Source: Enterobacter chengduensis
GTDB lineage: Bacteria; Pseudomonadota; Gammaproteobacteria; Enterobacterales; Enterobacteriaceae
Length of the DNA: 64,000 nt
Assembly: GCF_001984825.2 (NCBI RefSeq)
Contig: NZ_CP043318.1
Coordinates: 1,922,001 to 1,986,000 of the forward strand
Reading direction: 5' to 3'
Positions within the stretch are counted from its first letter, which is position 1; every line of letters begins with the position of its first letter. Shown here one piece after another: positions 16,324-53,756 of the stretch. The notes beneath the pieces are model-generated. The model was given only the letters and a program-made list of their open reading frames with translations. It made no database searches and was not told where the DNA came from. A program made the position numbers and the translations under genes.

Positions 16324-17592
16324 TTACGCTGGAAGATAATCGCCTTCTAGCGCCATGAGCATGCCTGTTTCTTCCATCCCCGTGATTGCCTTAGCATCAC
16401 GTTCCAGCTGAGCCCGATCGGAATGAAACAAGACAACCCTACCGTAGGAGGTGACTAAGTCGACCGTCTTTTCCAGATAATCGCCCGCGTTGTATTTGCA
16501 TACCGTAAAGCCATAACTTTCTAGCGAATTACAACGAGATTCGATCTCCACTGACTTAACGGTCCCGGCATGCTTAGAGGTAAGAAAATACTCTGCAGCG
16601 TACTGCTTTAACACCGGTTGAAGCGCTGTTTTATCGGCGAATTCGCGCGGCGAGATCCGCACGAGCAGACTTAAATCGATCAGAGAGTGAGAATTACAGG
16701 CTTCAACGAGACGTGGACCCAGCCCGCCATGCATTCGTGCTCCTGACTCAACCAAAACTGGCCCCTTGTCAGAGAGGATTACCTCGTTGTGGGACGTACC
16801 ATGACGAATGCCGAGTGAAGTCAATACCGTTTTGACATAGCTAACAAGTTCTGGGTGAGCATCAACCGGTTCAGCGATCATTTGTTGATAGATAGGAACC
16901 CCGTTGATTTCGTGTTTAATATATTTAAACAGGTTAACAATAAAATGTTCGCCCTGGCTGCTCACCGCGTCCACAACATATTCAGTACCGTCAATTCTCT
17001 GCTCGATCAGCAGTTCCGCATTTTTATTTCCTGAATAATCGCGCGTGTCGATCAGCGCATGGAATGCTTTTTTAACGTCTGAGATAGTTTTGCAGAAGAA
17101 AACGCCTTCCGTACCAAAAGAACAGACGGGTTTAACCACATATTCATCAAATGGGTGAGTTGCACACCATTGCAGGATCTCATCCAGACTACCGGATTTA
17201 TGGTGCGGAATATAGCGGATGCCGTCCTGCATGAGTTGTCGCTGCATCAGATATTTATCGCGTCGTGCAAGACTCTTTTCCGGTACGTTAGGTAAAAGAT
17301 TCCAGTGGCTGCACAGTTTGTCGAAAACCGCGACACCCGGCTCTGAGCCACAGACGATAAAGTCTGGCGCATGACCGAGAGCCCGCTCAATGAGCTGAAC
17401 GGTTTCCTCGAAATCACGACTGTAAAAGACCTTGCTATAATCTTCCTGACGAAATGTTGCCATCACCGCAGAGGGAAGTTGATTATTGGTAATCAGCGCA
17501 ATGACATTGTATCCGTAGAGTGTTTTTATGCGGTTGGCATAGGCTGCGCCACTGGAAAAAGGGTCAACAACCAGAACTGTTTTATTCTGCAT
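16324..17592 (-). CDS. ATP-grasp ligase of a putative biosynthetic cluster
   Basis: A 422-residue ATP-grasp protein resembling the BacD-type L-amino acid ligases and related carboxylate-amine ligases. Visible parts: an N-terminal pre-ATP-grasp domain (1-115), a lid region with conserved Lys in DEYVVKPVCSFGTEGV (about 150), and the metal-binding end VLVESGARMHGGLGPRLVEACNSHSLIDLSL (about 275-305). The family joins a carboxylate, activated as acyl phosphate, to an amine or amino acid. It is the last gene in the cluster, 23 bases after the reductase. A similar role in building an amide or dipeptide product is inferred; the substrate is not known. Confidence 0.8.
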   Translation of the reverse strand: MQNKTVLVVDPFSSGAAYANRIKTLYGYNVIALITNNQLPSAVMATFRQEDYSKVFYSRDFEETVQLIERALGHAPDFIVCGSEPGVAVFDKLCSHWNLLPNVPEKSLARRDKYLMQRQLMQDGIRYIPHHKSGSLDEILQWCATHPFDEYVVKPVCSFGTEGVFFCKTISDVKKAFHALIDTRDYSGNKNAELLIEQRIDGTEYVVDAVSSQGEHFIVNLFKYIKHEINGVPIYQQMIAEPVDAHPELVSYVKTVLTSLGIRHGTSHNEVILSDKGPVLVESGARMHGGLGPRLVEACNSHSLIDLSLLVRISPREFADKTALQPVLKQYAAEYFLTSKHAGTVKSVEIESRCNSLESYGFTVCKYNAGDYLEKTVDLVTSYGRVVLFHSDRAQLERDAKAITGMEETGMLMALEGDYLPA

Positions 17593-17615
17593 TTTATATC
17601 CTTGGCTTAATGAAT

Positions 17616-18644
17616 TCAGAGAGTCTCAATAACAATATCTTTCTCGGAGTAAGAGCAGCAGGCGAGATGAATATTTTCCTGGTGGTCTTTTGTCGACAAA
17701 CAGAAATCGGGAACAGTTTGTACTTCGCCGCCGATCAGACGGAATTTACAGCTGCCGCATATTCCTGAACGACACATATTCCTGATGGGAATGCCGTGCT
17801 GCATAAGGTTCTCAAGAACCGTTGCGCCCGCCGTTACGTTGATTTCCCGGCCCATGTTTTGCACAGTGAGGCGAGCGGGGGAAATCACCGGTTCGCTGTC
17901 ACTTAGCTTCAACGCTGGTGCGCTGCTAAATGCTTCAACGGCGATGGTTGTCTTCGGAAAGTGTTGCTGGAGCGCGGTCATCATCGTTTGTGCAAAACCG
18001 ACGCTACCACAGATTATGGCGATATCAGGAATAACGCCTTTCACGTCCCGACCCACCTCAATGCGGCCTGAATTAATAAATTCGCTGTGCCTGATCGGCG
18101 AGGCGCGGGTGACGTTTATCCGTAGCGTGAACCAGTTGCTGCGCAGATGAAGATCGAGCAACTCATTAAGGCAGGGCATGGACTTCAGATCTGTACAGCT
18201 TAATTGTAATACAACATTTTTTTGAGCTACGGTGTATCCATAATGTCTGAAGCTTTCACGTAGTAATGCGAGAGGCAGCGTGATGCCTATACCATTTGCC
18301 ATCAGTAACACGTTTGTTTTATCACGTAGGGTATTAAACGTTATCTCCCCGCCATGTTCTGTAACCTCTACTTCTTTTTTATTCAGCAACAGTCGGGAAA
18401 GCGTTGCAGATGCATGCCCCTCGCCTTTATCTTCAATAATAACGTCATAGTATTCTCCTTTTTCACTGTTCACTACCGTATAACAGCGATGAAAAGAAGC
18501 ACCAGATGTATCCCTGAAAAGGAAGTTTAAGTATTGTCCGGGATAAATATCTTTTTCCCGGGACACGTCTTTATCAACGGGGATCAGCCTGAACATTCTG
18601 ATACGTTGCGTTAAAAATGTTGATTCAGCACAAATCAGTTTCAT
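17616..18644 (-). CDS. Flavin/2Fe-2S oxidoreductase (electron donor)
   Basis: A 342-residue reductase with a ferredoxin-NADP-reductase-like domain (about 1-235; FAD motif HRCYTVV near residue 52, nucleotide-binding GIGITLPL near 118, ICGS near 215) followed by a plant-type 2Fe-2S ferredoxin domain (about 255-342) with Cys pattern CRSGICGSC plus a last Cys in HLACCSY. This is the build of Class IA/IB oxygenase reductases, passing electrons from NAD(P)H to an oxygenase. It follows the AurF-like gene by 18 bases, so it very likely reduces that diiron enzyme, and perhaps the second diiron oxidase too. Confidence 0.85.
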   Translation of the reverse strand: MKLICAESTFLTQRIRMFRLIPVDKDVSREKDIYPGQYLNFLFRDTSGASFHRCYTVVNSEKGEYYDVIIEDKGEGHASATLSRLLLNKKEVEVTEHGGEITFNTLRDKTNVLLMANGIGITLPLALLRESFRHYGYTVAQKNVVLQLSCTDLKSMPCLNELLDLHLRSNWFTLRINVTRASPIRHSEFINSGRIEVGRDVKGVIPDIAIICGSVGFAQTMMTALQQHFPKTTIAVEAFSSAPALKLSDSEPVISPARLTVQNMGREINVTAGATVLENLMQHGIPIRNMCRSGICGSCKFRLIGGEVQTVPDFCLSTKDHQENIHLACCSYSEKDIVIETL

Positions 18645-18661
18645 TTTTTCTCACCGTGTCA

Positions 18662-19567
18662 TTACAGACCGATTCGTGAAATGACGGTTTCCGCTGAGTC
18701 GAGATAGATATTTATCTCATTACAGCTTTCTGTATCCGCAATAATGTCTCGGGCGTGAGGCATCCCTGCAAGACGGAATGCCGTCTCCCACGCGCCGAGT
18801 TCATTATTCGCAAAGAGTTCGGCAGTGCTGAGCATGGTATCTCTGAGATATTTCCGTTCGCTCTGGCCGAGCTCTCTGACAATATCATAGGCAACATAGC
18901 TAAAGACGCTTGAGTGGCTCCATTCGTCTTCAGCGTGAATCCGGGTAACCTCATGGCAGATTTTTTGGATACTGTTATCGGTGGCCATCACTTTAAGATA
19001 ATCGGTTATCAGCGTCTCACTGGCGCAGGCGATAGCGAAGCGGGTAAGGCGTCTTTGCCAGTCTGCATTGCACGCGGCCAGCGTTTTTTGCCGCCAGTCA
19101 ATAAGGTTAAAATCTCTGTAATTCAGCGGCTCAATCTTGCGTCGGTCGTAGATGTAGTTACTCGCCAGCAATGACATTCGCGTGTGCAGAGCTTCGTCCA
19201 ACAGCGCTTCAGACATAACGTCCTGCAATAATGCCCGATTCGGAGAATTAACCGGCGGGCACTTAATAATGTCTTCACAGGCGGGAGTGACAATATCGCA
19301 TTCGATATAGATCGTTTTGAGATTATAAATCCCCCATGCGTAGGACAGACAACGGTCCTTGATATCGTCAGGTGCTTCTCGCCAGGCATCATGCTCTTTG
19401 AAGGGCAGCAAAGACATGCTGAAATCTTTTTTATCTGGATCAAATTCGAGTTCAGTATATTCGTAAGGGCCTTTATTAACTGCTGCCCGGTTTTTCCAGA
19501 GAGCCGACAGTTTATTGAGCATTAGCGCAACATTCTGACTATCGGGCACGGCAAAATCAGCGGTCAT
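18662..19567 (-). CDS. AurF-like diiron N-oxygenase
   Basis: A 301-residue helical protein with the metal-ligand pattern of AurF-family arylamine N-oxygenases. Ligand motifs: DEALHT (about residues 117-122), a Glu in ACASETLITDYLK (about 180), and HAEDEWSH near residue 211, which gives the HxxxExxH spacing of AurF. AurF converts p-aminobenzoate to p-nitrobenzoate; relatives make nitro or N-hydroxy groups in chloramphenicol and obafluorin. The protein is followed by its probable reductase. Its substrate is unknown; an arylamine or amino-acid amine is plausible given the N-acetyltransferase encoded nearby. Confidence 0.8.
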   Translation of the reverse strand: MTADFAVPDSQNVALMLNKLSALWKNRAAVNKGPYEYTELEFDPDKKDFSMSLLPFKEHDAWREAPDDIKDRCLSYAWGIYNLKTIYIECDIVTPACEDIIKCPPVNSPNRALLQDVMSEALLDEALHTRMSLLASNYIYDRRKIEPLNYRDFNLIDWRQKTLAACNADWQRRLTRFAIACASETLITDYLKVMATDNSIQKICHEVTRIHAEDEWSHSSVFSYVAYDIVRELGQSERKYLRDTMLSTAELFANNELGAWETAFRLAGMPHARDIIADTESCNEINIYLDSAETVISRIGL

Positions 19568-19598
19568 AAAATACTCCGATTAATGACAAGTGATAATA

Positions 19599-20786
19599 TT
19601 AGCTTTCGTGTTTTACACGTATCAGGCTCATGAAGAGGGCGCCGGTGAGGGCCAGCATCGCTGAAATCATCAGCGTCTGCTCCCAGTGACCTTTATCCAG
19701 CAGATCGCCGTATAAAATGGCTGACAACGCACTGCCTAAATAAAAAGAGAGCTGACGAATACTTGTTGATAACAGCGTTCTTTCTTTCGCGAAGCCGGTT
19801 ATCGCAAGCGTATCCAGGAGGGGCATCAGGCAGTAATTAAGAAGAAGTCGCAGGAAATAGAGTACAATAAAAATAAAAACGGGAACATGCAAAGACTGAG
19901 AGTACAGACAACCAGCCGTTAATATTCCTGCAATAATAATCGTGGGCTTTAGTGAAAATCGCTTGACCAGTAAAGGGGCAAACAGGGCACCGATGATACT
20001 GACAATTTTGTCTCCACCCATTATTAATGAAATTTCGCTGATATTCATGCTGTACGCAAGATTAAATACGATATTCACGAACCGAAAGATGAGCGTAATG
20101 GATGCGCCAAGCAGTGCTGCAGCGATAAAGAGCACGGCAAAGTTATACCACTCCAGCTCCTTTTTTTCCACCATACGTCGGGTGTCACTTTCAGGTTCAG
20201 AGATACCCTGAATCGATTTAATGCGAAAATAGATCATTAGTAAGGAAGCCATAAATGATGCTACAAGAATTCCCTGATAGTGACCTAATGCTTCGCCACT
20301 CAAATAGTGAGTAACCGCGCTGACTATAACTGAACCTGTCATCGCCGCACCCAGATAGGCAACAAAAAAGCAGCTGAAAAGCGTAGTTCTGCTTTCAGGG
20401 TTAATATTCGATCCCATCAGAGAATTCCCGAGTGACAGAAGGGCAATCATTCCGGAAAGAATAAGCCCTAACGTAATGGCACTTCCCCATACCGAGGTGA
20501 GAACGGGTAGCAGAATAAAAGGTAGGCTGTAAATAAAAGCGGAAATCAGCAGTAAACGCTTTTGAGAAACACGCCTGCTGATGTAAATCAGCGGAATCAC
20601 CGCGGCGGCCATCATTGCCATGGCGATGGCATAGATATGACCTGTCGCCGCTTTATCTACGCCTCGCGCGTCGAGATAAAAGTTATAAACGGCGTCGAAC
20701 ATACCATTACTGAGTCCCATTAGAAAGGTAGCAATCAAAAAATTGCGCGCCGCGGAACTGAATTTTTTTATATCAGCGAACATCAT
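19599..20786 (-). CDS. MFS transporter, likely exporter of the cluster product
   Basis: A 395-residue membrane protein with about 12 hydrophobic segments and a long central loop around residues 185-205 (KSIQGISEPESDTRRMVEKKE), the usual layout of the major facilitator superfamily. The loop between segments 2 and 3 has a basic YISRRVSQKR run as in other MFS proteins. Its start overlaps the preceding hydrolase stop by four bases, so the two are translationally coupled. Location in a biosynthetic operon suggests export of the product or self-resistance; this is inference. Confidence 0.82.
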   Translation of the reverse strand: MMFADIKKFSSAARNFLIATFLMGLSNGMFDAVYNFYLDARGVDKAATGHIYAIAMAMMAAAVIPLIYISRRVSQKRLLLISAFIYSLPFILLPVLTSVWGSAITLGLILSGMIALLSLGNSLMGSNINPESRTTLFSCFFVAYLGAAMTGSVIVSAVTHYLSGEALGHYQGILVASFMASLLMIYFRIKSIQGISEPESDTRRMVEKKELEWYNFAVLFIAAALLGASITLIFRFVNIVFNLAYSMNISEISLIMGGDKIVSIIGALFAPLLVKRFSLKPTIIIAGILTAGCLYSQSLHVPVFIFIVLYFLRLLLNYCLMPLLDTLAITGFAKERTLLSTSIRQLSFYLGSALSAILYGDLLDKGHWEQTLMISAMLALTGALFMSLIRVKHES

Positions 20787-21349
20787 ACTTCCCTTTTTGC
20801 AACGTCAATGAATAAAGCGCCGGTGAATGTCTCAAATAAACGTTCCCCCTCTGACCATTGCCCGTATCCCGCAGCGGTATGCAGATGACCTGCTCCCGGA
20901 ATCATGCGGGTTTCGCATCCCCACTGCCGTGCGAGAACGCGCGCGCGATCTTCACTGAGGTGTTCATCGTTATCGCTGTGTATTAGCAGGGAGCGAATTC
21001 CCAGCGATGTTGAAGGCAGAGGACGCTGCTGTTTTAAAGGTTCTAACGCGGTTTCTGCGTCTACGTCTGCCGGTGCCACGAGGATTAGCGCCCGTACTTT
21101 ATTACTGGCACAAGACGTAGCCCACTGGGCAACGGTAACCGCACCGCAGCTATGTCCGAGCAATACGATATCGCCTTCGGTTTCGGCGATGGTGCGGTCA
21201 AGCCTGGCAATCCATTCGGATCGTGAAGGATTATTCCAGTCGTCCTGCTGGACGCGAACAGCGTTGCTGTATTTACGCTCTATCCAGCTCTGCCAGTGCT
21301 CGGGCCCTGAGTTTGTGTAGCCCGGAACGAGGAGGTAGGTGGTTTTCAT
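20783..21349 (-). CDS. RBBP9/YdeN-family serine hydrolase
   Basis: A 188-residue alpha/beta hydrolase of the small RBBP9/YdeN type. Landmarks are LLVPGYTNSGPEHWQSWIE at the N-terminus, the nucleophile elbow GHSCGA (Ser near residue 67), an acidic residue in LLIHSDNDEH, and a C-terminal His in GAGHLHTAAGYGQW. The family has serine hydrolase folds with poorly known substrates. In this cluster it might release or trim an ester or amide intermediate. It overlaps the MFS gene by four bases and lies 12 bases after the N-acetyltransferase gene. Confidence 0.85.
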   Translation of the reverse strand: MKTTYLLVPGYTNSGPEHWQSWIERKYSNAVRVQQDDWNNPSRSEWIARLDRTIAETEGDIVLLGHSCGAVTVAQWATSCASNKVRALILVAPADVDAETALEPLKQQRPLPSTSLGIRSLLIHSDNDEHLSEDRARVLARQWGCETRMIPGAGHLHTAAGYGQWSEGERLFETFTGALFIDVAKREV

Positions 21350-21361
21350 GGGTGTTTCGCC

Positions 21362-22141
21362 TTAAGAGAGTTGTTCTGATGGAATACTGAGTCCGAATCG
21401 TGAGAAGAGAAGCTCCGCCAGTTTTTCTTTATTTGTTATCTCCTCAGAGAGGGACGTCACCCCCTTTACTTCGGTGAACACATTATTGCGCAGGCTTATT
21501 CTGCCCTGCGGTGTAGGCAAGCTCGCCACCTTATTTGTGTTAAGAAGGCTTTCGGGATGATGTAGGGTATAAAAGTGAGCCATTTGGATATCAGGTTCCA
21601 GCGCGTCCGTATCGTGGAAAGCGTAGATTGCCTCCCAGACGGCATCGGGTTTACTCATCTCTTTTACAGAAACTACCCAGCCATAGACCGGATGGCGGTT
21701 TACTCTGGTTGAGAGGAAGGCGTGGTGATGGGTGTAATCTTCAGAAAGCAAAATCGGTGCCCGTGGCCCTTTAGCGCCAAAACCGATATCGAAAATCCAC
21801 TGTTGGTTATTAAGGGTTACAATAAAAAACTGGTGTGTGGCAGGCGTGGTATGGGGGATGAGTACTCTGGCTAAACGTTTACGAAAAACAATACCCGCAT
21901 GTTTAAACAGCGCTTCCAGCAATAGTGCAAATTCAAAGCAGATTCCACCCCTGTGATTGACCATTATGTTGCTGGCAATCTCATCATAAGAGAGTTTTTT
22001 CACAGCATTTTCTTTCATTCCAAAATTTTCAAAGGGAATAGAATAAAAATGCGCATTATGCAGTTGGGTGAGAAAATCAATATCTGCGGTCGGCGCTATA
22101 GTGAGTTTTAGTTTCTTAAGATAAACATCAAGATACTTCAT
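21362..22141 (-). CDS. Arylamine N-acetyltransferase-family protein
   Basis: A 259-residue member of the NAT family, which uses a Cys-His-Asp triad to move acyl groups from CoA to arylamines, hydrazines or arylhydroxylamines. The Cys lies in NHRGGICFEF (about residue 69), the His in ATHQFFIV (about 108), and the Asp in WIFDIGFG (about 123). The length is normal. Some relatives act as amide synthases closing macrolactams (rifamycin RifF type). Presence beside an AurF-like N-oxygenase suggests arylamine or hydroxylamine chemistry in this pathway; that link is inference. Confidence 0.88.
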   Translation of the reverse strand: MKYLDVYLKKLKLTIAPTADIDFLTQLHNAHFYSIPFENFGMKENAVKKLSYDEIASNIMVNHRGGICFEFALLLEALFKHAGIVFRKRLARVLIPHTTPATHQFFIVTLNNQQWIFDIGFGAKGPRAPILLSEDYTHHHAFLSTRVNRHPVYGWVVSVKEMSKPDAVWEAIYAFHDTDALEPDIQMAHFYTLHHPESLLNTNKVASLPTPQGRISLRNNVFTEVKGVTSLSEEITNKEKLAELLFSRFGLSIPSEQLS

Positions 22142-22255
22142 AAATCCACCATCAAATAATCAACAGCACAATTTTATTTATGACAAGGAGAGATAGTTCC
22201 CACGAGAGGAACTATCTTCGGTATTAATTGTAAATAAGGTAATTCTGTGTTGCGG

Positions 22256-23278
22256 TTACTGAGTTATTGTATCCAGCAGCCCATCGTAATAATCTGCGCA
22301 AGACTGCAGGCGAAGTATCGCGCCAGAAATAATATCATTCGCCGCTTCCGGTTTTTTCATTAACAATGGCTTAATAACGTTGTTTAGCCACCCGTCGGCA
22401 TGGTCAACGTCAATTTCAATATGTTCAGTATAGTAGAGTGCATGTTTTTCATTGATGCCCAGACGCTTAATACCTCTGACAAGCTTTGTATATTGTGGAG
22501 GATCGAGTAGCTCTGTGACGGCCATCGCGCCGATTGATTTATAATAATGCTGACGATTGGTCGCTCCCAACATAAACACATTATAACCTGTATATCCTTG
22601 CCAGGTATAAAGATTGGTAAATCGATCGTCTGGAAGAGATATATTACGTTGTGTTAACAGATGTTCATATAAACCGACATGTGTCCGATTTGGATCGCCA
22701 TTGCCAGACTCATCCCAGAGGTTTTTACAAATTTCTGCTCTTGTTTGCGGTAAAGAACCCGGGAGCATTAGCGCAACAAGGTCAAAAAACAGAATATTTA
22801 ACGCACTGTCACTTTTGAAAAAATAATCCATCTGTTCTACGGAAGCCGTAGATTCAAGAAAATCAAAAATCGGATGGCAGGAAGCGCGATGAGACTGGCA
22901 GAGCTCAATAAGCTGGTGTGAGAGGTTTTCACCTTTGCCGATCGTTATTTTGGGCACCCGGCTCATTTCATAAGACAGCCAGTGCGTTTGAATTTCTTGT
23001 TTTAATGCCAGCAGCAGTGGATGATATTGGTTTCCAGCCGCAGCGGACTGCGGTTCTGCAAGAGAGAGATTATTAAGTATAAAAAGCGCATGTTGAAGTT
23101 CTTTGCGCGCGAGCAGATTACCTTCGGAATATGCCTGGCCTGAGAGCGCACGGCAGGTATCCAGGATTTGCTCTTCTGTAATGCCTTGCTGCTGTAAAAG
23201 ATCGGCGGGATTAGGAGTATTCGCCAACTGAAGAACGACTTCGTTTAAGGGCGCGTCGAAACGCCTGCTATTGCTCAT
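22256..23278 (-). CDS. Haem-oxygenase-like diiron oxidase (HDO family)
   Basis: A 340-residue all-helical protein of the iron-containing redox enzyme type (Haem_oxygenas_2 / HDO fold). Metal-ligand motifs are visible: HPIFDFLE (about 145), NLWDESGNGDPNRTHVGLY (about 200), and YYTEHIEIDVDHADGW (about 295). HDO enzymes use a transient diiron site for N-oxygenation, C-C cleavage (BesC, UndA), N-N bond formation (SznF) or, for CADD, p-aminobenzoate synthesis. The start at 23278 (MSNSRRFDAPL) is chosen over a 21-residue longer TTG start. It is probably the first gene of the biosynthetic operon. Reaction and substrate are not known. Confidence 0.78.
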   Translation of the reverse strand: MSNSRRFDAPLNEVVLQLANTPNPADLLQQQGITEEQILDTCRALSGQAYSEGNLLARKELQHALFILNNLSLAEPQSAAAGNQYHPLLLALKQEIQTHWLSYEMSRVPKITIGKGENLSHQLIELCQSHRASCHPIFDFLESTASVEQMDYFFKSDSALNILFFDLVALMLPGSLPQTRAEICKNLWDESGNGDPNRTHVGLYEHLLTQRNISLPDDRFTNLYTWQGYTGYNVFMLGATNRQHYYKSIGAMAVTELLDPPQYTKLVRGIKRLGINEKHALYYTEHIEIDVDHADGWLNNVIKPLLMKKPEAANDIISGAILRLQSCADYYDGLLDTITQ

Positions 23279-23493
23279 GGTGTGTTTGAACCTGCTATGT
23301 GAGATACAGGCAAAAGCTATCACATCTAAAACTATACGCAACAGTAAAGTTGTTATAATGTTAAAAAATTAAAGAATATAGTTATATATTATTGATTTTG
23401 AAGGGTTTTTATCTTGTGCTGTGTGTTGTTGTTTTTTAACATTAATAAAGTGACGCAATAACTATACTCATCGGTCTACTTGCGGGAAGTCTC
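23279..23493. promoter_or_regulatory. Probable promoter/operator region of the biosynthetic cluster
   Basis: A 215-base AT-rich gap between the TetR gene and the HDO gene, both on the minus strand. It contains a 9-base inverted repeat, TATAGTTAT at 23377-23385 and ATAACTATA at 23458-23466. These are good candidates for TetR operator half-sites controlling the operon. Promoter location is inferred from the gap; no boxes are assigned firmly. Confidence 0.4.
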
Positions 23494-24069
23494 TTAAAAG
23501 ACCTTGCTCTCAGCAAGGATTAGCGATTTTGCAGCAATCCATGCCAGATCGATAGCCTGATACTCGCGGGTCATTGAGGGGCTGAGGGAGGCAATAATTG
23601 CGCCATCAATCAGAATCATGATCGTTAGCGCGAGACGCTCCGCTGGCTCTGGCTCTATCGCTTCTTTAAGCACATCCGTTATGGTTTGGACCAAATCGGT
23701 TTTCAGTTCATCGTTAATCTGCAAAATAAGCGGGGAGGTGGCCCCCAGTTCTGTTACAGCACGTGAAAACATACATCCGTTAAAATCGGGACCGGCTATC
23801 CAGGAGGCATAATAATCAAAGATGCCTTTCAGCTTCAGGCGAGGTGTGGCGGCAGTAGAGATTATCTGCGCAATTTCGCTTAAGAAAACCGTTTTTCGAA
23901 TGCTGAGAACTTCCGTTATTAATGACTCTTTGTCCGGGAAGTATTTATAAAAAGTCATTTTTGAAACATCGCCCGCCTGAGCAATTTTTTCTATGCTCGG
24001 GCTGACATAACCGGATTCGTTGAAAATGTTATTCGCTGCACTGATTATTTTCATTTTTGTATTACGCAT
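23494..24069 (-). CDS. TetR-family regulator of the biosynthetic cluster
   Basis: A 191-residue TetR-family protein. The N-terminal helix-turn-helix (about 8-55) reads IISAANNIFNESGYVSPS, then IEKIAQAGDVSKMTFYKYFPDKESL, typical of the family. The C-terminal ligand domain has ILIDGAIIASL near residue 155. It lies upstream of, and in the same direction as, the biosynthetic genes, and is a likely pathway-specific repressor sensing a product or precursor. AT-rich like the rest of the cluster. Confidence 0.85.
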   Translation of the reverse strand: MRNTKMKIISAANNIFNESGYVSPSIEKIAQAGDVSKMTFYKYFPDKESLITEVLSIRKTVFLSEIAQIISTAATPRLKLKGIFDYYASWIAGPDFNGCMFSRAVTELGATSPLILQINDELKTDLVQTITDVLKEAIEPEPAERLALTIMILIDGAIIASLSPSMTREYQAIDLAWIAAKSLILAESKVF

Positions 24070-24223: not shown

Positions 24224-24250
24224 AAAAAAGCCCGCATTTTCATGCGAGCT
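24224..24250 (-). terminator. Terminator, end of tRNA-Ser copy-1 module
   Basis: On the minus strand AGCTCGCAT-GAAA-ATGCGGGCT followed by six T. It is nearly the same as the terminators at 24404-24432 and 27337-27365. Confidence 0.8.
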
Positions 24251-24262
24251 CTTCTTCAAATA

Positions 24263-24400
24263 TGGCGGTGAGGGGGGGATTGACTCGCTTCGCTCGCCCT
24301 GCGGGCAGCCTGTTCGCTTCGCTCTCAGTCTGTCCAACTGGCTGCGCCAATTGTCGAACCCCGGTCGGGGGTTCTCATCCCCCCTGCATGTGTGCAACAT
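24263..24400 (-). repeat. rtT-like repeat with tRNA-Ser 3' tail, unit A
   Basis: A 138-base unit downstream of tRNA-Ser copy 1. Its end (24263-24281, TGGCGGTGAGGGGGGGATT) is identical to the last 19 bases of the tRNA gene including CCA, then diverges. It also carries a GAACCCC-GGTC-GGGGGTTC hairpin near 24356. A close copy is at 27378-27500. E. coli tyrT is followed by rtT repeats built the same way, each holding a 19-base tRNA tail. Confidence 0.75.
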
Positions 24401-24432: not shown

Positions 24433-24444
24433 CTTCTTCAAATA

Positions 24445-24532
24445 TGGCGGTGAGGGGGGGATTCGAACCCCCGATACGTTGCCGTATACACACTTTCCAG
24501 GCGTGCTCCTTCAGCCACTCGGACACCTCACC
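24445..24532 (-). tRNA. tRNA-Ser (anticodon GGA), copy 1
   Basis: An 88-base class II tRNA gene with encoded CCA (TGG at 24445-24447 on the plus strand). The 5' end reads GGTGAGGTGTCCGAG, the anticodon loop is CTGGAAAG (anticodon GGA at 24496-24498), the long variable arm and the TTCGAATC T-loop are present. It matches E. coli serW/serX. It is identical to the copy at 27560-27647. Confidence 0.96.
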
Positions 24533-24669
24533 ATATTGTTTTGCTGCCTGACTGCTTGGGGGGCAACGGGGCGCTACTATAGGGAGTTGCGCTAAAACGG
24601 TCAAGCAGATTTTCTGTATTCGTGTGCGTTCGGTTAAGCCTTAATCAGCTCATGCCGCAGTACGGGTTA

Positions 24670-27336: not shown

Positions 27337-27365
27337 AAAAAAAAGCCCGCATTTTCATGCGAGCT
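27337..27365 (-). terminator. Terminator inside tRNA-Ser copy-2 module
   Basis: Same stem as 24404-24432 with eight T on the minus strand. Confidence 0.8.
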
Positions 27366-27377
27366 CTTCTTCAAATA

Positions 27378-27500
27378 TGGCGGTGAGGGGGGGATTGACT
27401 CGCTTCGCTCGCCCTGCGGGCAGCCTGTTCGCTGCGCTCTCAGTCTGTCCAACTGGCTGTCGCCAGTTGTCGAACCCCGGTCGGGGGTTCTCATCCCCCC
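27378..27500 (-). repeat. rtT-like repeat with tRNA-Ser 3' tail, unit B
   Basis: A close copy of unit A. Bases 27378-27396 repeat the last 19 bases of the tRNA gene, followed by the same CGCTTCGCTCGCCCTGCGG segment and GAACCCC...GGGGTTC hairpin. It differs from unit A at a few positions (for example CTGTCGCCAG against CTGCGCCAA). Confidence 0.75.
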
Positions 27501-27546: not shown

Positions 27547-27559
27547 CTCATCTTAAATA

Positions 27560-27647
27560 TGGCGGTGAGGGGGGGATTCGAACCCCCGATACGTTGCCGT
27601 ATACACACTTTCCAGGCGTGCTCCTTCAGCCACTCGGACACCTCACC
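27560..27647 (-). tRNA. serX: tRNA-Ser (anticodon GGA), copy 2
   Basis: An 88-base tRNA-Ser gene with encoded CCA, identical to the copy at 24445-24532. It lies 232 bases upstream of the divergent ghrA, the place of serX in E. coli, so this is the copy most likely equivalent to serX. Confidence 0.96.
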
Positions 27648-27879
27648 ATATTGTCATCCCGTTGTTGTCGGGACGGGCGCTAATGTAAGGAAAAGCCGAA
27701 CTCCCGTCAACTCACTTTTTCAGTAATTTAGCGCGTTTAGACAAACTTCAGGCAACATGATTCTTAAATGTGCTGAAAGCGTCTTTTTTATCAGCAACAC
27801 AGTCGCGCAATAAATTTGATATGCTGACCCTCCAGTGAAAAAGCAAAATAAATCAGCGCAATAAAAGGCAGGAATAACT

Positions 27880-42658: not shown

Positions 42659-42687
42659 TGTATAGGTGCATGAATGCGAACTGTCAA
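42659..42687 (-). promoter_or_regulatory. Hybrid sigma70 promoter for msyB at the element junction
   Basis: On the minus strand: -35 TTGACA (42687-42682), 17-base spacer, -10 TATACA (42664-42659). Predicted start near 42652, 25 bases before the msyB ATG. The -10 is host DNA, the spacer holds the 11-base attachment repeat, and the -35 lies inside the element, within the first codons of the recombinase gene. Confidence 0.65.
42670..42680. repeat. Left attachment repeat (attL core)
   Basis: ATGAATGCGAA, identical to 56466-56476. The recombinase ATG (42674-42676) is inside it, and the AGGTG ribosome site of the recombinase (42664-42668) is in the host flank. Confidence 0.7.
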
Positions 42688-44509
42688 AGCCTACATTTAT
42701 AGTAGGGTATCGAGCTTACAGCAGGTTGATGCTTTTGGCTTAGATCGCCAGATCAGTACAGTATTAGACTTCCTCGAAAACGCTAAACTGCCCACCGAAT
42801 TAGGGTATCAACTTGATCCAAGCAATTACGAAGTACTGGAAAGTGATAAAGGTCTGTCAGGGTACAAAGGGCATAACTTTACCAAAGGTTCTTTAGGTCA
42901 GTTTAAGCGGCGTGTAGAGGCAGGGGAGATAACTGAAGGTTGCTTGCTAATCGAGTCTGTAGACCGCTTTTCACGTAAGCAAGGCTACGATGCTATCGAT
43001 GAGTTTACTTTTTTAATCAAACGTAACATTGATATTGTAGAGGTTGAGACTGGACAAATTTACAGCTACAAACTCGACCACAAGTTATCCGCATTATCCA
43101 CCAGTATCGAACGTGCTCACCAGGAATCGAAAAGAAAAGCCCGTATCAGTAAAAAATCATGGAACAGACGAAAAGAAGAATCATTGTCTACGGGTGTTGC
43201 TCTTAACAACAATACACCTGACTGGCTTTCTCTCAGCCACGATAAAAAGTCATATGAGATTGACCCTCAGAAGTTACAAACGATAACCAAAATTTTTGAG
43301 TGGTATAGTGATGGCTATGGTGTGACAGAAATCGTGAATCGGCTTAACGGGGAAGGCGATAGATACAATGGCAGAGGGTGGAACACGGTCACAGTCTATA
43401 ACAAGTTGAGGGATCGCCGCCTAAATGGGTATCTAATCGGCAAGTACTCAACCATCCTGAAGAAAGAAAATGAAAGTACCAGTGACGCTGAAAAGCGAAT
43501 CTTGGGAAATATTAAGATTAAGAAAGAAGCAAATGATAATGCAATACGTATCTATCCAGTAGTTATTGATGATGAGTTGTTTTCAAAAATTCAATCTATG
43601 ATGGATAGAAATGTATCCTCCAAAAAGCAAAGAAGTACTACAACGAAGCAAAGAAATCTCTTTAACGGTTTAACTAAGTGCCATGAATGCGGTAGCCCAA
43701 TGATCGTTCAAAGTATGTCTAATGGTGGGCAGTACTTGAGGTGTTATAGACAACGTACAAAAGATGAGAAATGTAACTCAAAAATGCTTCGGTACTTTGA
43801 AAGTGAGAAGGTGCTATTAGGGCACATTAAAAATCTCAATATTGATGAAATCTATAATGATCAAAAACAGAGTCAATCTTTAGAAGTACTGAAAAGGAAA
43901 CTGTCAGATATTAATGAAAAAATAGTGTTGCTGAATGATAAGGTCAGGAGTGCCAGCGATGAAGATGAACTCTTTGCTATCATGGAATTCAAAAGAAAAC
44001 GCATTATAGAAAAAGATGAATTAACTGAAAAGATAAGTGCACTTGAAAACGAAAGTGAAATTTTTCGTTTGGATTATAACTATGATGTAGAAAAGCTCAC
44101 AGACCAGGACAACACAGTACTTAGAAGAAAAGCTAACGAGCATATAGCGAAGGTGATTTCCTCAATTAAGTGTCGAAGAATTGATTCTAGTTACATTGGT
44201 GCTTACTATCTCTATGATATTACCTACCATAGAGAAGTGCTTAAGCATATCCTGATTACCGATAACAGTGGCAAGTTGATTAGTGAAATAGCCATATCAG
44301 AAAAAGATAACGAACGTACTTATCAGGTAAGAGAAGGTGGTAAAACTGTTTTCAAGGTAGAATCGAATGGTAATGCCTGGGTATTGTATGCAAGTAGAAC
44401 TAAAACAATAGATGATTTACTCTATTACATAACTACAATGATGGTTGGAAGAGAGCCAGATGAGTTTGTATACCAACTGAACGAAGATCAGATCGAATGG
44501 ATTGACTAG
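42674..44509 (+). CDS. Large serine recombinase (integrase of the element)
   Basis: A 611-residue large serine recombinase. N-terminal resolvase domain (about 1-150) begins AYIYSRVSSLQQVDAFGLDRQ, with the nucleophile Ser in SRVSS and the catalytic Arg region in ESVDRFSRKQGYD; a Recombinase domain (about 190-300; WYSDGYGVTEIVNRLNGEG) follows, then a zinc ribbon with CHECGSPM and CYRQRTKDEKC (about 335-375), and a coiled-coil C-terminal region (about 395-470). This class integrates and excises phages and mobile islands at short att sites. It starts within the left att repeat and has AGGTG five bases before its ATG. AT-rich, unlike the host genes beside it. Confidence 0.93.
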   Translation: MRTVKAYIYSRVSSLQQVDAFGLDRQISTVLDFLENAKLPTELGYQLDPSNYEVLESDKGLSGYKGHNFTKGSLGQFKRRVEAGEITEGCLLIESVDRFSRKQGYDAIDEFTFLIKRNIDIVEVETGQIYSYKLDHKLSALSTSIERAHQESKRKARISKKSWNRRKEESLSTGVALNNNTPDWLSLSHDKKSYEIDPQKLQTITKIFEWYSDGYGVTEIVNRLNGEGDRYNGRGWNTVTVYNKLRDRRLNGYLIGKYSTILKKENESTSDAEKRILGNIKIKKEANDNAIRIYPVVIDDELFSKIQSMMDRNVSSKKQRSTTTKQRNLFNGLTKCHECGSPMIVQSMSNGGQYLRCYRQRTKDEKCNSKMLRYFESEKVLLGHIKNLNIDEIYNDQKQSQSLEVLKRKLSDINEKIVLLNDKVRSASDEDELFAIMEFKRKRIIEKDELTEKISALENESEIFRLDYNYDVEKLTDQDNTVLRRKANEHIAKVISSIKCRRIDSSYIGAYYLYDITYHREVLKHILITDNSGKLISEIAISEKDNERTYQVREGGKTVFKVESNGNAWVLYASRTKTIDDLLYYITTMMVGREPDEFVYQLNEDQIEWID

Positions 44510-44529
44510 TACTGGAGAGAATTATTAGT

Positions 44530-44676
44530 ATGTGGATTAACCTGCTTATAGATATGATACTTGGTATTGGCCTAGTGTGCGGTCTTGGTTGGTTAATCCT
44601 TAGATTTTGGCCTTACATCTTCAGTGTAGTATTCATACTGGCGACGATCTATGAGTTGTGGAGCATTTTCATATGA
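44530..44676 (+). CDS. Small membrane protein, 48 residues
   Basis: A 48-residue open frame 20 bases after the recombinase, with a GGAGAG site about ten bases before ATG. It begins MWINLLIDMILGIGLVCG and contains two hydrophobic stretches ending in ELWSIFI. No family is recognised. It could be a small membrane protein carried with the recombinase. Its stop overlaps the next tiny frame by ATGA. Confidence 0.45.
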   Translation: MWINLLIDMILGIGLVCGLGWLILRFWPYIFSVVFILATIYELWSIFI

Positions 44677-44756
44677 ACAATGTAACCATATCCCTGAAGG
44701 GTTTATTGAAAAATACAAAGTTGAGTAATGATAGTATTTCTCTTTTAAAAATGTAA
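44673..44756 (+). CDS. Tiny open frame, 27 residues, coupled to the small membrane gene
   Basis: MNNVTISLKGLLKNTKLSND... and ends in LLKM. Its ATG overlaps the stop of the preceding gene (ATGA), which can couple translation. No family is recognised and it may be chance. Confidence 0.2.
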   Translation: MNNVTISLKGLLKNTKLSNDSISLLKM

Positions 44757-45268
44757 CTAACAATCGTTACATGTATTTTTGTGATAAATCTAACGTTACT
44801 TCCAAAGTACATAGTGATGTACTTGAAAGTAGTCTATAGTTAAATTGACAATAATAATAAAGTAGTATCAGTTGAGTAGTTAGCAGTACTTTGATGATAG
44901 TTGTCATGGGACGTAAGCGAAATACGATACATTTTTTTGCCCTGCTAGTATTTGATGGTATTAGCAGGGTGTTTTTATGTTTGAAGAACAATAGTAAAGC
45001 TAACTATTTATAACGTTGAATAGTACAAGCCATGATAAATCGCAAGGCAGACTATCTAATTTTCCGATAAGTATTTGATTATTGTAAAAACAAGATTTTA
45101 CGTTTTAAGTTTAATTTTGGTCTCGTGTACGCTCGTATGCGAGGCTTTTTTGTATATGGTAATGCGTTGATATGGTTTTGTAATAGAGCCTCTCAAAACG
45201 CGTCACAGCAAAAATTTGCGTTAAGTGATTTGTGAGGGTGACTGATATCAGGCGATGTGAGATTTTTC
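44757..45268. other. Non-coding AT-rich region with a terminator-like hairpins
   Basis: No convincing gene. It holds a stem CCTGCTA...TAGCAGG followed by TGTTTTT (about 44940-44977) and a CTCGTATGCGAG-GCTTTTTTG stem-loop near 45132-45153, both looking like plus-strand terminators of short untranslated transcripts. A minus-strand open frame here has no ribosome site and was left out. Confidence 0.4.
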
Positions 45269-45298
45269 TTGGTGAAAAAACCTTCTATTTGATATAAT
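45269..45298 (+). promoter_or_regulatory. Sigma70-like promoter for a structured RNA
   Basis: -35 TTGGTG (45269-45274), 18-base spacer, -10 TATAAT (45293-45298, perfect). It points at the hairpin array that starts about 45 bases downstream. Confidence 0.5.
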
Positions 45299-45304
45299 AA
45301 CAAT

Positions 45305-45425
45305 CAATCCAAAACTCCTGTTGGTGAAAGGTAGTACTGAAATGAGGTTGCCGCCTCTACCGTTTGCCGACGGTTAAAGGTACATTACCTTCTTATAGCC
45401 CCTGGAAGGATTCAGGGGCTATAGT
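45305..45425 (+). ncRNA. Candidate structured non-coding RNA with four consecutive hairpins
   Basis: Between 45344 and 45422 four hairpins follow without gaps of more than a few bases: GAGG-(TTGCCG)-CCTC (45344-45357), ACCGT-(TTGCCG)-ACGGT (45359-45374), AAGGTA-(CAT)-TACCTT (45377-45391), and a perfect ten-pair stem ATAGCCCCTG/CAGGGGCTAT around loop GAAGGATT (45395-45422). The first two share the same six-base loop. A good promoter lies just upstream and no reading frame crosses it. The last hairpin lacks a long T tract, so where the RNA ends is unsure. Confidence 0.5.
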
Positions 45426-45509
45426 ATTGAAATGTTCCAACCTGGTATGTTCATATCAGTACTTCTATTACAATAACTCACATGATTACCCCTCTTTATA
45501 TAAATAAAT

Positions 45510-45533
45510 GTATACAATACAGGAGGCGTATAC
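45510..45533. promoter_or_regulatory. GTATAC repeat pair flanking a ribosome site
   Basis: GTATAC occurs at 45510-45515 and 45528-45533, on both sides of the AGGAGG ribosome site of the small membrane gene at 45534. The same hexamer occurs twice in tandem at 45958-45969 before the ribbon-helix-helix gene, suggesting shared control. Confidence 0.4.
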
Positions 45534-45704
45534 ATGCTAAAACTTTTAATTGAATTCTTACTATTCCCAATCTACACAATACTAGTATTGATGTTTATGA
45601 TTCTCACAGTACTAGCACTTCCAATAAAGATACGATTTGTAGAACGTTACATAAGACAATACATAAATAAAAGTACTAATGTAATACGCAAGAAAAAAAC
45701 CTAA
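45534..45704 (+). CDS. Small membrane protein, 56 residues
   Basis: A 56-residue open frame with an excellent AGGAGG site seven bases before ATG. It has one or two hydrophobic segments (residues 2-31; LIEFLLFPIYTILVLM, FMILTVLALP) and a basic tail (IRKKKT), so it is likely an inner-membrane protein with its C-terminus in the cytoplasm. No family recognised. GTATAC sites flank its ribosome site. Too short for usual gene finders but well supported. Confidence 0.6.
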   Translation: MLKLLIEFLLFPIYTILVLMFMILTVLALPIKIRFVERYIRQYINKSTNVIRKKKT

Positions 45705-45989
45705 GAATTTTGGATCGGGTGATTTTTTCACGGTATAATGTAGGTATCTACAACATATTTGGGACAGACACAAAAAATGTCCTATAATATAGATATGGCT
45801 TTTTGAATGATCGAAAACGTTCACGTAGCCGAACTGCGAAGTATAATTCAATTCTCCAGCCATCAGAGACTAAATAGATGGTAACATTATAATTCTCCTA
45901 TATTGCTAAAGTATAGCCCCCTAAAAAGGGCTATCTTTTTTGCTTGGGATAAATAACGTATACGTATACAAATTACATGAGTTAATTAA
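45705..45989. other. Non-coding region with promoter and hairpins
   Basis: A promoter-like TTGGAT (45710-45715), 18 bases, TATAAT (45734-45739) points right. Downstream is a GGACA...TGTCC stem and an ATGGCT...AGCCAT long-range pairing, then a terminator-like AGCCC...GGGCT with TTTTTT near 45914-45941. This could be a second short RNA of about 190 bases. No gene is seen. Ends with the tandem GTATAC motif at 45958-45969. Confidence 0.35.
45958..45969. promoter_or_regulatory. Tandem GTATAC operator-like motif
   Basis: Two direct copies of GTATAC head to tail, 20 bases before the ribbon-helix-helix-like gene. A typical autoregulatory position for such a repressor; binding is inferred. Confidence 0.4.
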
Positions 45990-46163
45990 ATGAAGAATAA
46001 TAAATCTAAGGATAGAAAAGATAACGTAATAACCGCACGTTTATCTAATTCACAGGTTGAGGTACTAAAGAAATTGATTGATGAAGGTAAGGTATCAAAG
46101 GGTACTCTATCTTCTGCTGTAGGTTACTTAATTGATCAGTACATTGTACTAAACAGTAAGTAA
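45990..46163 (+). CDS. Small ribbon-helix-helix-like DNA-binding protein
   Basis: A 57-residue protein. After a basic N-terminal stretch (MKNNKSKDRKDN) it reads VITARLSNSQVEVLKKLIDEGK then VSKGTLSSAVGYLIDQYI, the strand-helix-helix layout of CopG/Arc-type repressors. It is likely a dimeric transcriptional regulator of the element. The ribosome site is weak. Tandem GTATAC motifs lie just upstream. The assignment rests on pattern only. Confidence 0.5.
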   Translation: MKNNKSKDRKDNVITARLSNSQVEVLKKLIDEGKVSKGTLSSAVGYLIDQYIVLNSK

Positions 46164-46241
46164 TTAATTGGTTGTCTACTAACCACACAATAAGTAGAAA
46201 CGCGATTACAGGAAGTAACGCGGGTAATATGGAAGTTATAT

Positions 46242-46715
46242 ATGAAAATATGGAAAGAAACGAAATATGAATATTATGTGGTAAGTAATGAAGGTGATGT
46301 ATTCAATACTAAGACAGAAACACTACTAAAGCTAACCCCTTCAAAATCTAATGGGTACTACAAAGTAACACTATCTGTCAAAGGTGGTGATAGTAGAACT
46401 GTAGAAGTTCATCGACTAATCGCAGAAACTTTTATTGAACGTGATGAATCATTGAAATTAGTTGTTGATCATATTGATGGTAATCCTCTAAACAATCACG
46501 TGGATAACCTACAATGGATTACACAAAAAGAGAATATGGCTAAAGCGAAAAATAAACGTAGCTGGAATAGATTCACCGAAGAAGAGAAAGTACAAATTAT
46601 TGATGCGTGGAATACTGGAAAGTACTCATACATTGGGATTACATCTCACTTCAATCAACTATGGAACCGTAATACTACACGACATAGTTACACAAGAATT
46701 ATCAAAAAAGCATAA
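46242..46715 (+). CDS. HNH endonuclease with NUMOD4 motif
   Basis: A 157-residue free-standing HNH endonuclease of the phage type. NUMOD4 motif at the N-terminus (IWKETKYEYYVVSNEGDVFN), then the HNH_3 motif (VHRLIAETFI, then VVDHIDGNPLNNHVDNLQWITQKENM about residues 85-112) with the metal-binding His-Asn-His pattern, then a C-terminal helix-turn-helix-like part. Such enzymes spread as homing endonucleases or nick DNA in phage packaging. Not inside an intron here as far as can be seen. Confidence 0.88.
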   Translation: MKIWKETKYEYYVVSNEGDVFNTKTETLLKLTPSKSNGYYKVTLSVKGGDSRTVEVHRLIAETFIERDESLKLVVDHIDGNPLNNHVDNLQWITQKENMAKAKNKRSWNRFTEEEKVQIIDAWNTGKYSYIGITSHFNQLWNRNTTRHSYTRIIKKA

Positions 46716-46769
46716 TAACTTAGGGGCTATCATGTAGGAGTGACAGCCCCATATTAAGGGGGAATTATA

Positions 46770-47240
46770 ATGGCAAGAAAAGAAACAATACACAATAATC
46801 AAATGATCCAGAATGAACTACGTTTAATTTGCTTTAATTCACTATCTAGTGAAGCAAAAGAAGTAATGCGTGGGATAATCCAGAAAAGTACTTTTCTAGG
46901 TAAAAACCGTGTACCGGAAGAAGATGTATTTGCGATAGTAAAGAATGCTCCTGAATTCAGTGAAGTTATGGTATTTGAACATCTAAAACTATTCAGACAG
47001 AATAAAAATCAAAACTATCCAGATAGTAAATCATCGCGTGAAAAGTACAAACGCATAGCAACCCTAGTATCACAGGCGTTTGAAGTACTAGTAAAGGAAG
47101 GGAAATCCCTTAATAGAATGAAGCAATACAAACCAAAGAATACCGTAACTGAAGAACATGTAGCACTAGTTGAACTGCTAAAAGATGAAGGTGCGGATCT
47201 TATTACCTTAATTGAACGACTAGTAGCAATGAATAAGTAA
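46770..47240 (+). CDS. Hypothetical protein, 156 residues
   Basis: A soluble, mostly helical and charged protein starting MARKETIHNNQMIQNELRLICFNSL. It has a GGGGGAA ribosome site. A KRIATLVSQAFEVLVKEGKSLNRM helix pair lies around residues 90-115 and the tail VALVELLKDEGADLITLIERLVAMNK may be a coiled coil. No family recognised. It lies between the HNH gene and a region with repeated ATACGGTT motifs. Confidence 0.6.
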   Translation: MARKETIHNNQMIQNELRLICFNSLSSEAKEVMRGIIQKSTFLGKNRVPEEDVFAIVKNAPEFSEVMVFEHLKLFRQNKNQNYPDSKSSREKYKRIATLVSQAFEVLVKEGKSLNRMKQYKPKNTVTEEHVALVELLKDEGADLITLIERLVAMNK

Positions 47241-47260
47241 TTGATTTATATGGGAGTAAT

Positions 47261-47322
47261 AACCGTAACTATAACCGTATTGTATACGTCGAAAATACGG
47301 TTATTATGAGTAAAATACGGTT
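47261..47322. repeat. Repeated ATACGGTT motifs (iteron-like or operator)
   Basis: Exact copies at 47295-47302 and 47315-47322, an inverted copy AACCGTAT at 47273-47280, and a near copy AACCGTAA at 47261-47268, with GTATAC (47282-47287) in the middle. Spacing is 20 bases between the two direct copies. Confidence 0.45.
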
Positions 47323-48777: not shown

Positions 48778-49006
48778 TATATGCCTATATAAGGCTGACA
48801 CTTTAATATCTAGAATCGTTATGTGCTATAAAATTCTTGCCCTTGATAATGGTATATATGAGATATATCGCTTGAGTGAAAGCAGCGATCATTCGTTTAC
48901 TCAGTTAGCCCGGACTATCCTTAGTACACATGAGGTTTTACTAACTAATCCTCAGACGTATCCCGACATTTCATATATAGACTATATTATGTTCTACGTA
49001 CCCTAG
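48770..49006 (+). CDS. Hypothetical protein, 78 residues
   Basis: Starts eight bases before the stop of the EAL gene (MTNICLYKADTLIS), indicating coupling. It reads as a small soluble protein with a C-terminal SYIDYIMFYVP. It has no known family. It may be part of a small operon with the EAL gene and the next unknown gene. Confidence 0.4.
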   Translation: MTNICLYKADTLISRIVMCYKILALDNGIYEIYRLSESSDHSFTQLARTILSTHEVLLTNPQTYPDISYIDYIMFYVP

Positions 49007-49019
49007 TTAAGGAAGAAAA

Positions 49020-49619: not shown

Positions 49620-49625
49620 TTTTCT

Positions 49626-49664
49626 CAATGCCTTTACTACTTGGTAAGGGCATTGAGCTTTTGG
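49626..49664 (+). terminator. Terminator of the EAL-1 operon
   Basis: CAATGCC-CTTAC-type stem: CAATGCCTTTACTACTTGGTAAGGGCATTG arms pair nearly fully, followed by AGCTTTT. Confidence 0.7.
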
Positions 49665-50779: not shown

Positions 50780-50786
50780 TTGAATA

Positions 50787-50842: not shown

Positions 50843-50844
50843 TT

Positions 50845-53733: not shown

Positions 53734-53756
53734 CGACAGACCAGAAGCGGGAAGCC

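What the first reader, a model, noticed from the sequence alone, without database searches (positions are those of the whole stretch)
16324..24069. Candidate undescribed biosynthetic cluster for an N-oxygenated or N-acylated metabolite
Eight same-strand genes between phoH and a tRNA-Ser: TetR regulator, haem-oxygenase-like diiron oxidase, arylamine N-acetyltransferase, small serine hydrolase, MFS exporter, AurF-like diiron N-oxygenase, FNR/2Fe-2S reductase, ATP-grasp ligase. Tight spacing (a four-base overlap, gaps of 12-31 bases through most of the operon) and AT richness against the backbone point to one transferred unit. It pairs two different diiron families with an amide ligase but no NRPS or PKS. 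I do not recognise this combination as a described pathway.
Basis: partly seen in the sequence, partly recalled or inferred. Interest (0 to 1): 0.8.

Follow-up and report, generated by a model that had tools for sequence, protein, structure and literature searches.

The report
Known antibiotic operon plus oxidase module
Six of these eight genes match an antibiotic-making gene set already described in Pantoea (PNP-2), lying beside a separate two-gene oxidase unit, and one of its enzymes resembles a kind proposed to add oxygen to the side-chain nitrogen of glutamine, which suggests what the antibiotic may contain.

Summary
The eight genes are real and intact, but they are not one undescribed cluster. 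The last six (NAT, serine hydrolase, MFS, AurF-family oxygenase, FNR/2Fe-2S reductase, ATP-grasp) match the Pantoea Natural Product 2 cluster, pnp2A-F: a Pantoea plasmid copy has the same order, the published length (5,784 bp) and nearly the published GC. The first two (TetR and a haem-oxygenase-like diiron enzyme, HDO) are a separate module: not found in five PNP-2 loci with upstream DNA, and found without PNP-2 in six other Enterobacterales loci. The HDO is closest by sequence and fold to the lysine N-oxygenase HrmI. The ~7.9 kb lies between phoH and tRNA-Ser, where five of ten same-genus genomes have only about 31-145 bp.

The useful new point concerns mechanism. The "AurF" is 65% identical to an Alcaligenes DnfA-type enzyme and only 27-29% to AurF and CmlI. 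DnfAB is proposed (and disputed) to N-hydroxylate glutamine's amide. PNP-2 has no DnfC-type amidotransferase but has an amino-acid ligase, so I predict that its product carries a glutamyl (or asparaginyl) hydroxamate. This is inference, at about 45%.

The parts
16324..17592 (-). ATP-grasp ligase, pnp2F equivalent; L-amino-acid-ligase/dapdiamide-synthase-like
   Evidence: Pfam ATP-grasp_4; NCBIfam PRK07206 subfamily 313.8 bits (cutoff 302); DdaF 194 bits (cutoff 840, not met); PDB 30vh L-amino acid ligase 156 bits; 70% identical to the Pantoea copy
17616..18644 (-). FNR-type reductase with C-terminal 2Fe-2S, pnp2E equivalent; presumed electron donor of the diiron oxygenase
   Evidence: 50% to the Pantoea copy, 32% to the reductases beside dnfA-type genes (L006, L007); 2Fe-2S motif CRSGICGSC...C present
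18662..19567 (-). AurF-family diiron N-oxygenase of the DnfA branch, pnp2D equivalent
   Evidence: Pfam AurF 163.5 bits; 65% to Alcaligenes DnfA-type P0098, 27% AurF, 29% CmlI; tree; ligands E89, E125, H128, E184, H211, E215, H218
19599..20786 (-). MFS exporter, pnp2C equivalent
   Evidence: Pfam MFS_1; 79% to the Pantoea copy
20783..21349 (-). small serine hydrolase (DUF1234/RBBP9 type), pnp2B equivalent; GHSCG nucleophile motif, no signal peptide seen by eye
   Evidence: Pfam Ser_hydrolase 186.8 bits; PDB 3bdv; 70% to the Pantoea copy
21362..22141 (-). arylamine N-acetyltransferase homologue, pnp2A equivalent; the Cys, His and Asp of the NAT triad (triad recalled) line up with Salmonella NAT by eye
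   Evidence: Pfam Acetyltransf_2; alignment to 1e2t; 54% to the Pantoea copy
22142..22255 (-). 114-bp gap between the two modules, with a perfect 10-bp inverted repeat at 22191-22217 and no strong T run
   Evidence: folding z-score -1.63, 12 of 200 shuffles fold as well (weak)
22256..23278 (-). haem-oxygenase-like diiron enzyme (HDO), HrmI-like; separate module
23494..24069 (-). TetR regulator that travels with the HDO
   Evidence: Pfam TetR_N; a 40-44% relative stands next to the HDO in L009, L019, L024 and L038
16309..24223 (.). approximate extent of the inserted segment between the phoH end and the tRNA-Ser/RtT repeats
   Evidence: comparison with 10 same-genus phoH loci and repeats

Best explanation
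Genes 16324-22141 are a copy of the PNP-2 antibiotic operon (identity about 0.93). A TetR-regulated HrmI-type HDO module (22256-24069) sits upstream and is a separate unit (about 0.8). Likely working: the DnfA-type oxygenase (pnp2D) with its reductase (pnp2E) N-hydroxylates a side-chain amide, most likely glutamine, to the gamma-hydroxamate; the ATP-grasp ligase (pnp2F) joins this amino acid to another as a small peptide; the NAT and serine hydrolase add or remove an acyl group (tailoring or self-protection); the MFS protein exports it. The product would be a hydroxamate-bearing antimetabolite. Shown: gene content, order, family and branch. Inferred: every chemical step (substrate choice about 0.45). 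The HDO probably N-oxygenates the side-chain amine of lysine or a like amino acid, and is probably not needed for PNP-2.
For: Same six genes in the same order in Rouxiella, Ewingella, two Pectobacterium and Pantoea plasmids, 61.9-67.1% nt identity. The Pantoea AR8b copy is 5,784 bp and 41.87% GC against the published 6 genes, 5,784 bp, 41.89% GC (PMC11350110). CFSAN047154, whose region I read, is named in print as carrying PNP-2, and the NAT on the plasmid island is matched to Pnp2A (PMC11213898). pnp2E is called a predicted ferredoxin reductase, our fifth gene. Branch: 65% to Alcaligenes P0098, whose residues fall exactly at the seven published DnfA ligand numbers; tree: PNP-2 six rows 99/99, Dnf plus PNP-2 nine rows 91/99, AurF/CmlI set apart 98/95. 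SaAmOx/TsnB7, also AurF-family, yields glutamyl hydroxamate in E. coli (PMC13418202). No amidotransferase among the eight genes. HDO. Modules apart.
Against: Robinson 2020 is not held and its record MN329808 was not compared, so identity rests on length, GC, order, strain names and later papers. That DnfA acts on glutamine is disputed: it binds hydroxylamine and not glutamine, and direct evidence is said to be lacking (PMC11440038). SaAmOx is only 28% identical to the window enzyme, and its place in the tree is unsure. The 91/99 support lies under the tree tool's own 95/80 mark, and long branches meet. The reductase is only 32% identical to the Dnf ones, and pnp2E is reported truncated in Proteus, which weakens its role. 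NAT, AurF and ligase families would equally suit an aminobenzoate. Of the five PNP-2 loci without HDO two are near-identical Pantoea plasmids (99.4%) and two are Pectobacterium. The HDO has no exporter of its own here, which could mean that it uses the PNP-2 one.
Confidence: 0.55

Rival explanations
1. Aminobenzoate route: pnp2D N-oxygenates an arylamine such as p-aminobenzoate (as AurF does), the NAT acetylates it, and the ATP-grasp joins it to an amino acid, giving an N-oxygenated aminobenzoyl-amino acid.
For: AurF and NAT Pfam families; the residue aligned with AurF Arg96 (its role as substrate-carboxylate contact is recalled) is Lys in 121 of 121 rows (window plus the 120 listed of 194 homologues), so a carboxylate-bearing substrate is possible.
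Against: The DnfA-type branch is by far the closest; the NCBIfam AurF and NAT equivalog cutoffs are missed widely (101.8 against 620; 101.7 against 493); no aminobenzoate-making family among the eight genes.
Confidence: 0.2
2. One eight-gene pathway: the HDO supplies an N-oxygenated building block that the PNP-2 enzymes use, under the TetR regulator.
For: Same strand, one inserted segment, no exporter of its own beside the HDO here; an AurF relative (P0003, 97%, unnamed) and an HDO relative (P0122, 90%, E. bugandensis) list the same longest contig length, 968,810 bases, so the two genes may be linked in another strain.
Against: No credible HDO hit in 5 of 5 PNP-2 loci with upstream DNA (the sixth, L002, is cut short); HDO without any PNP-2 gene in 6 of 6 Enterobacterales loci read; wide gaps only around the HDO; the six-gene cluster is reported cloned and expressed in E. 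coli (PMC7744662).
Confidence: 0.18
3. A Dirammox-like hydroxylamine or N2 pathway.
For: DnfA-type oxygenase at 65% and a reductase.
Against: No DnfC amidotransferase or MocR regulator among the eight genes, while both lie near the relatives in L006 and L007; NAT, ligase and MFS exporter instead; the PNP-2 product is an antibacterial.
Confidence: 0.04

Closest known systems
[quoted passage not shown] agglomerans Tx10
   Same: Six genes, order, family of each gene, lowered GC; Enterobacter already among reported carriers
   Different: The window copy is preceded by a TetR-HDO module; 65% nt identity to two Pantoea plasmid copies; it lies between phoH and tRNA-Ser
DnfA/DnfB of Dirammox (Alcaligenes)
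   Same: 65% identical oxygenase, same seven ligands, adjacent FNR/2Fe-2S reductase
   Different: No DnfC amidotransferase, no MocR regulator; NAT, hydrolase, MFS and ligase instead
TsnB7/SaAmOx glutamine amide oxygenases (trichostatin, benzohydroxamic acid)
   Same: AurF family, all ligands; product chemistry proposed here
   Different: 28% identity; small accessory protein (TsnB6) and AsnB-like transferase (TsnB9) instead of a reductase and a ligase
HrmI/BelK lysine N-oxygenases (hormaomycin, belactosin)
   Different: One ligand position is Asp where HrmI has Glu; no Fe/2OG partner gene among the eight
DdaF dapdiamide synthase
   Same: ATP-grasp amino-acid-ligase family, 194 bits
   Different: Far below the DdaF cutoff (840)

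Membership tests
PNP-2 biosynthetic cluster | six genes pnp2A-F, syntenic, as one run | tested here: met
   length and GC of the Pantoea copy match; the Tx10 record itself not compared
PNP-2 biosynthetic cluster | pnp2A a NAT homologue and pnp2E a ferredoxin-reductase homologue | tested here: met
PNP-2 biosynthetic cluster | nucleotide divergence under the survey's limit (60%, as far as the passage shown reads) | tested here: met
   34.6-34.7% divergence from two Pantoea plasmid copies (passage)
PNP-2 biosynthetic cluster | makes the broad-spectrum antibacterial | not testable with these tools
   needs a bioassay
DnfA-type diiron oxygenase | seven ligands at DnfA spacing and grouping with DnfA | tested here: met
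   (one extra residue between the first and second ligand; group support 91/99)
Dirammox dnf cluster | DnfC amidotransferase beside dnfAB | tested here: not met
   no GATase family among the eight proteins
AurF/CmlI arylamine N-oxygenase | NCBIfam AurF cutoff and grouping with AurF/CmlI | tested here: not met
   101.8 against 620 bits
glutamine amide N-hydroxylase | forms L-glutamic acid gamma-hydroxamate | not testable with these tools
   needs an enzyme assay
HrmI-type lysine N-oxygenase (HDO) | HDO fold with N-terminal helical part | tested here: met
HrmI-type lysine N-oxygenase (HDO) | 3H/3C metal ligands | tested here: met
   ligand positions assigned by alignment and recalled HDO motifs; first carboxylate is Asp157, where HrmI has Glu; Asp157 is invariant in A2 but only at 90% or more in A1, which adds four loci
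HrmI-type lysine N-oxygenase (HDO) | accepts L-lysine | not testable with these tools
   needs an enzyme assay; the HrmI structure paper was not held
DdaF dapdiamide synthase | NCBIfam equivalog cutoff | tested here: not met
   194 against 840 bits

The most novel reading that the evidence does not exclude
In this lineage two unrelated diiron N-oxygenase families work in one NRPS-free pathway: the DnfA-type enzyme makes a glutamyl hydroxamate, the HrmI-type HDO makes N6-hydroxylysine or 6-nitronorleucine, and the ATP-grasp ligase joins them into a doubly N-oxygenated dipeptide antibiotic, a new PNP-2 congener.
Probability: 0.1. Interest if true: 0.8.

Novelty: new variant of a known kind. Interest (0 to 1): 0.48.

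Why it matters
PNP-2 is described as broad-spectrum and occurs in several Enterobacterales genera, and the passages that I could read give no structure. Recognising its oxygenase as DnfA-type links an antibiotic operon to Dirammox and trichostatin hydroxamate chemistry and gives a simple test: look for glutamyl hydroxamate. If right, it also offers a case where a DnfA-type enzyme works without DnfC, which bears on the disputed question of what DnfA acts on. The TetR-HDO modules are a further set of small orphan pathways.

Tried and rejected
Undescribed eight-gene cluster: rejected after PNP-2 was found. AurF-type arylamine oxygenase by name: downgraded after the Dnf comparison. E. coli and plasmid megablast with the whole region: best coverage 4% and 5%, and the rows shown (20 of 5399 and 20 of 49) lie in the tRNA-Ser/RtT part of the query; TetR-HDO DNA has no match in the E. 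coli set. Genome samples were thin. AurF query: 1 of 60 relatives and 0 of the 36 in the genus; 4 of 394 order genomes (one is PNP-2, on a contig of the same length as that of L004, and three are the 37% group); 0 of 369 class genomes at E <= 1e-60 (the tool says that an empty answer shows nothing). HDO query: 2 of 394 order genomes, 1 of 61 genus genomes. Six HDO loci were read, chosen from 55 plasmid records and three genomes with hits. The HDO alignment used 34 of 60 proteins found, mostly full-length ones picked by hand. dN/dS could not be given because dS was saturated for 7 of 8 genes. HrmI pocket comparison: paper not held. Promoter scan: 11 sites against 12.8 expected; terminator scan: 14 against 8.3 (sd 3.1), one of them the RtT hairpin; neither decides anything. 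A weak TetR hit (35.6%, E 1e-6, short) lies about 5 kb from the L003 cluster on the other strand. That the PNP-2/DnfA link is not in print rests only; one search found 8 papers and none of them holds both a PNP-2 term and DnfA. That no PNP-2 structure is in print rests and the passages read. Lossen-type chemistry after O-acetylation of a hydroxamate by the NAT was considered and left as speculation.

Literature seen: passages of PMC11350110, PMC7744662, PMC11213898, PMC9478400, PMC9136411, PMC11440038, PMC11160463, PMC12575085, PMC13418202, PMC5719088, PMC9570785, PMC13185094 and PMC13108848; outline and abstract too for PMC9478400 and PMC11440038; section 11 of PMC13108848 whole. Other papers only as search listings. 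Robinson 2020, Miao 2023 and Kudo 2017 not seen, cited through the others.
Full report
Observation. The close packing is real but concerns only the last six genes (gaps of 12, -4, 31, 17 and 23 bases). The HDO is 114 bp from the NAT gene, and TetR is 215 bp from the HDO if the HDO starts at the ATG at 23278. The segment is AT-richer than its surroundings. It is an insertion: of 10 same-genus genomes read at phoH, five have the phoH end and the tRNA-Ser/RtT repeats about 31-145 bp apart, five show beyond phoH DNA that matches nothing in the window, and none shows this cluster. I see no recombinase gene inside it. The host is probably Enterobacter: the nearest named proteins are from E. bugandensis (AurF 97%, HDO 90%). 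The window's own assembly is not held.

What the six genes are. A relative of the AurF gene in Rouxiella, Ewingella and two Pectobacterium contigs sits in the same six-gene run NAT-hydrolase-MFS-AurF-FNR-ATP-grasp, and so it does on Pantoea agglomerans plasmids. In the two other loci, Andreprevotia and Pseudomonas, only the oxygenase and reductase are shared. The Pantoea AR8b copy measures 5,784 bp at 41.87% GC. The published PNP-2 cluster of P. [quoted passage not shown] The same paper names strains CFSAN047153 and CFSAN047154 as PNP-2 carriers, and I read the CFSAN047154 copy. A second paper matches the NAT of that plasmid island to Pnp2A of a six-gene antibiotic cluster (PMC11213898). PNP-2 is listed for 38 Enterobacter, 30 Pantoea, 27 Proteus, 25 Serratia, 18 Providencia and 10 Pectobacterium genomes. 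[quoted passage not shown] coli and that antiSMASH did not identify it in Tx10 (PMC7744662). The primary paper is not held, and I have not compared the reference sequence.

What the oxygenase is. The 'AurF' protein has only 27-29% identity to AurF and CmlI, but 65% to an Alcaligenes protein (P0098) that carries E88, E123, H126, E182, H209, E213 and H216, the exact published ligand numbers of DnfA. In a 17-row tree the six PNP-2 proteins group at 99/99, they and three Dnf-type proteins at 91/99, and AurF, CmlI and two others apart at 98/95; 91/99 is under the tool's own mark, several deep branches are long, and the tool warns that such joins may be false. The loci of the 55-66% relatives L006 and L007 carry a MocR-type regulator and a class-I amidotransferase near the oxygenase-reductase pair, and L006 a pyridoxal-type kinase too, which resembles the published dnf layout. 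PNP-2 keeps the pair and lacks the amidotransferase.

How it most likely works (inference). [quoted passage not shown] Against this, DnfA binds hydroxylamine and not glutamine, and direct evidence is said to be lacking. For the AurF-family enzyme of the trichostatin type, glutamyl hydroxamate was detected on expression in E. coli (PMC13418202), and the gene with that protein accession lies in L039. With no DnfC- or TsnB9-type enzyme to strip or transfer the hydroxylamine, but with a ligase of the L-amino-acid-ligase group, the simplest reading is that the hydroxamate amino acid is kept and ligated. The NAT and the serine hydrolase would add or remove an acyl group. The MFS protein would export the product. 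[quoted passage not shown] Every chemical step is unproven. I give about 0.45 to the glutamine (or asparagine) amide reading, 0.2 to an aminobenzoate route, and the rest to other substrates.

Novelty. The core is a known cluster in a known genus. The variant features are the TetR-HDO neighbour and, as interpretation, the DnfA-type assignment of pnp2D, for which I found no statement in the papers searched. Interest is moderate: an antibiotic without a structure in the papers that I could read becomes directly testable.

Noticed in passing
window 24440-24539 and 27555-27654, with RtT-like repeats at 24224-24344 and 27339-27459: Two tRNA-Ser(GGA) genes identical over 100 nt, with near-identical (99% over 121 nt) RtT-type downstream repeats, 3.1 kb apart: a segmental duplication at the insertion site.
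   Followed up: partly
window about 42674-56000: AT-rich stretch (33.6-39.6% GC per kb from 43 to 53 kb) that begins with a large recombinase-like ORF (42674-44509) and holds an IS3-like transposase ORF (53757-54590), both judged by eye: looks like a separate integrated island.
   Followed up: no
L009 9038-12572 (Klebsiella aerogenes plasmid pC9_001): TetR - HrmI-like HDO - putative Fe/2OG enzyme (BtnX-like, 266 bits; HxD motif by eye) - LysE exporter: a compact orphan pathway on a plasmid typed as conjugative, recalling the HrmI/HrmJ and BesC/BesD pairings (recalled).
   Followed up: partly
   Followed up: partly
L007 8427-9566: Next to a dnf-like locus in Pseudomonas sp. T1-3-2, a MOSC protein resembling 6-hydroxyaminopurine reductase (177 bits, cutoff 294).
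   Followed up: no
   Followed up: no
   Followed up: no
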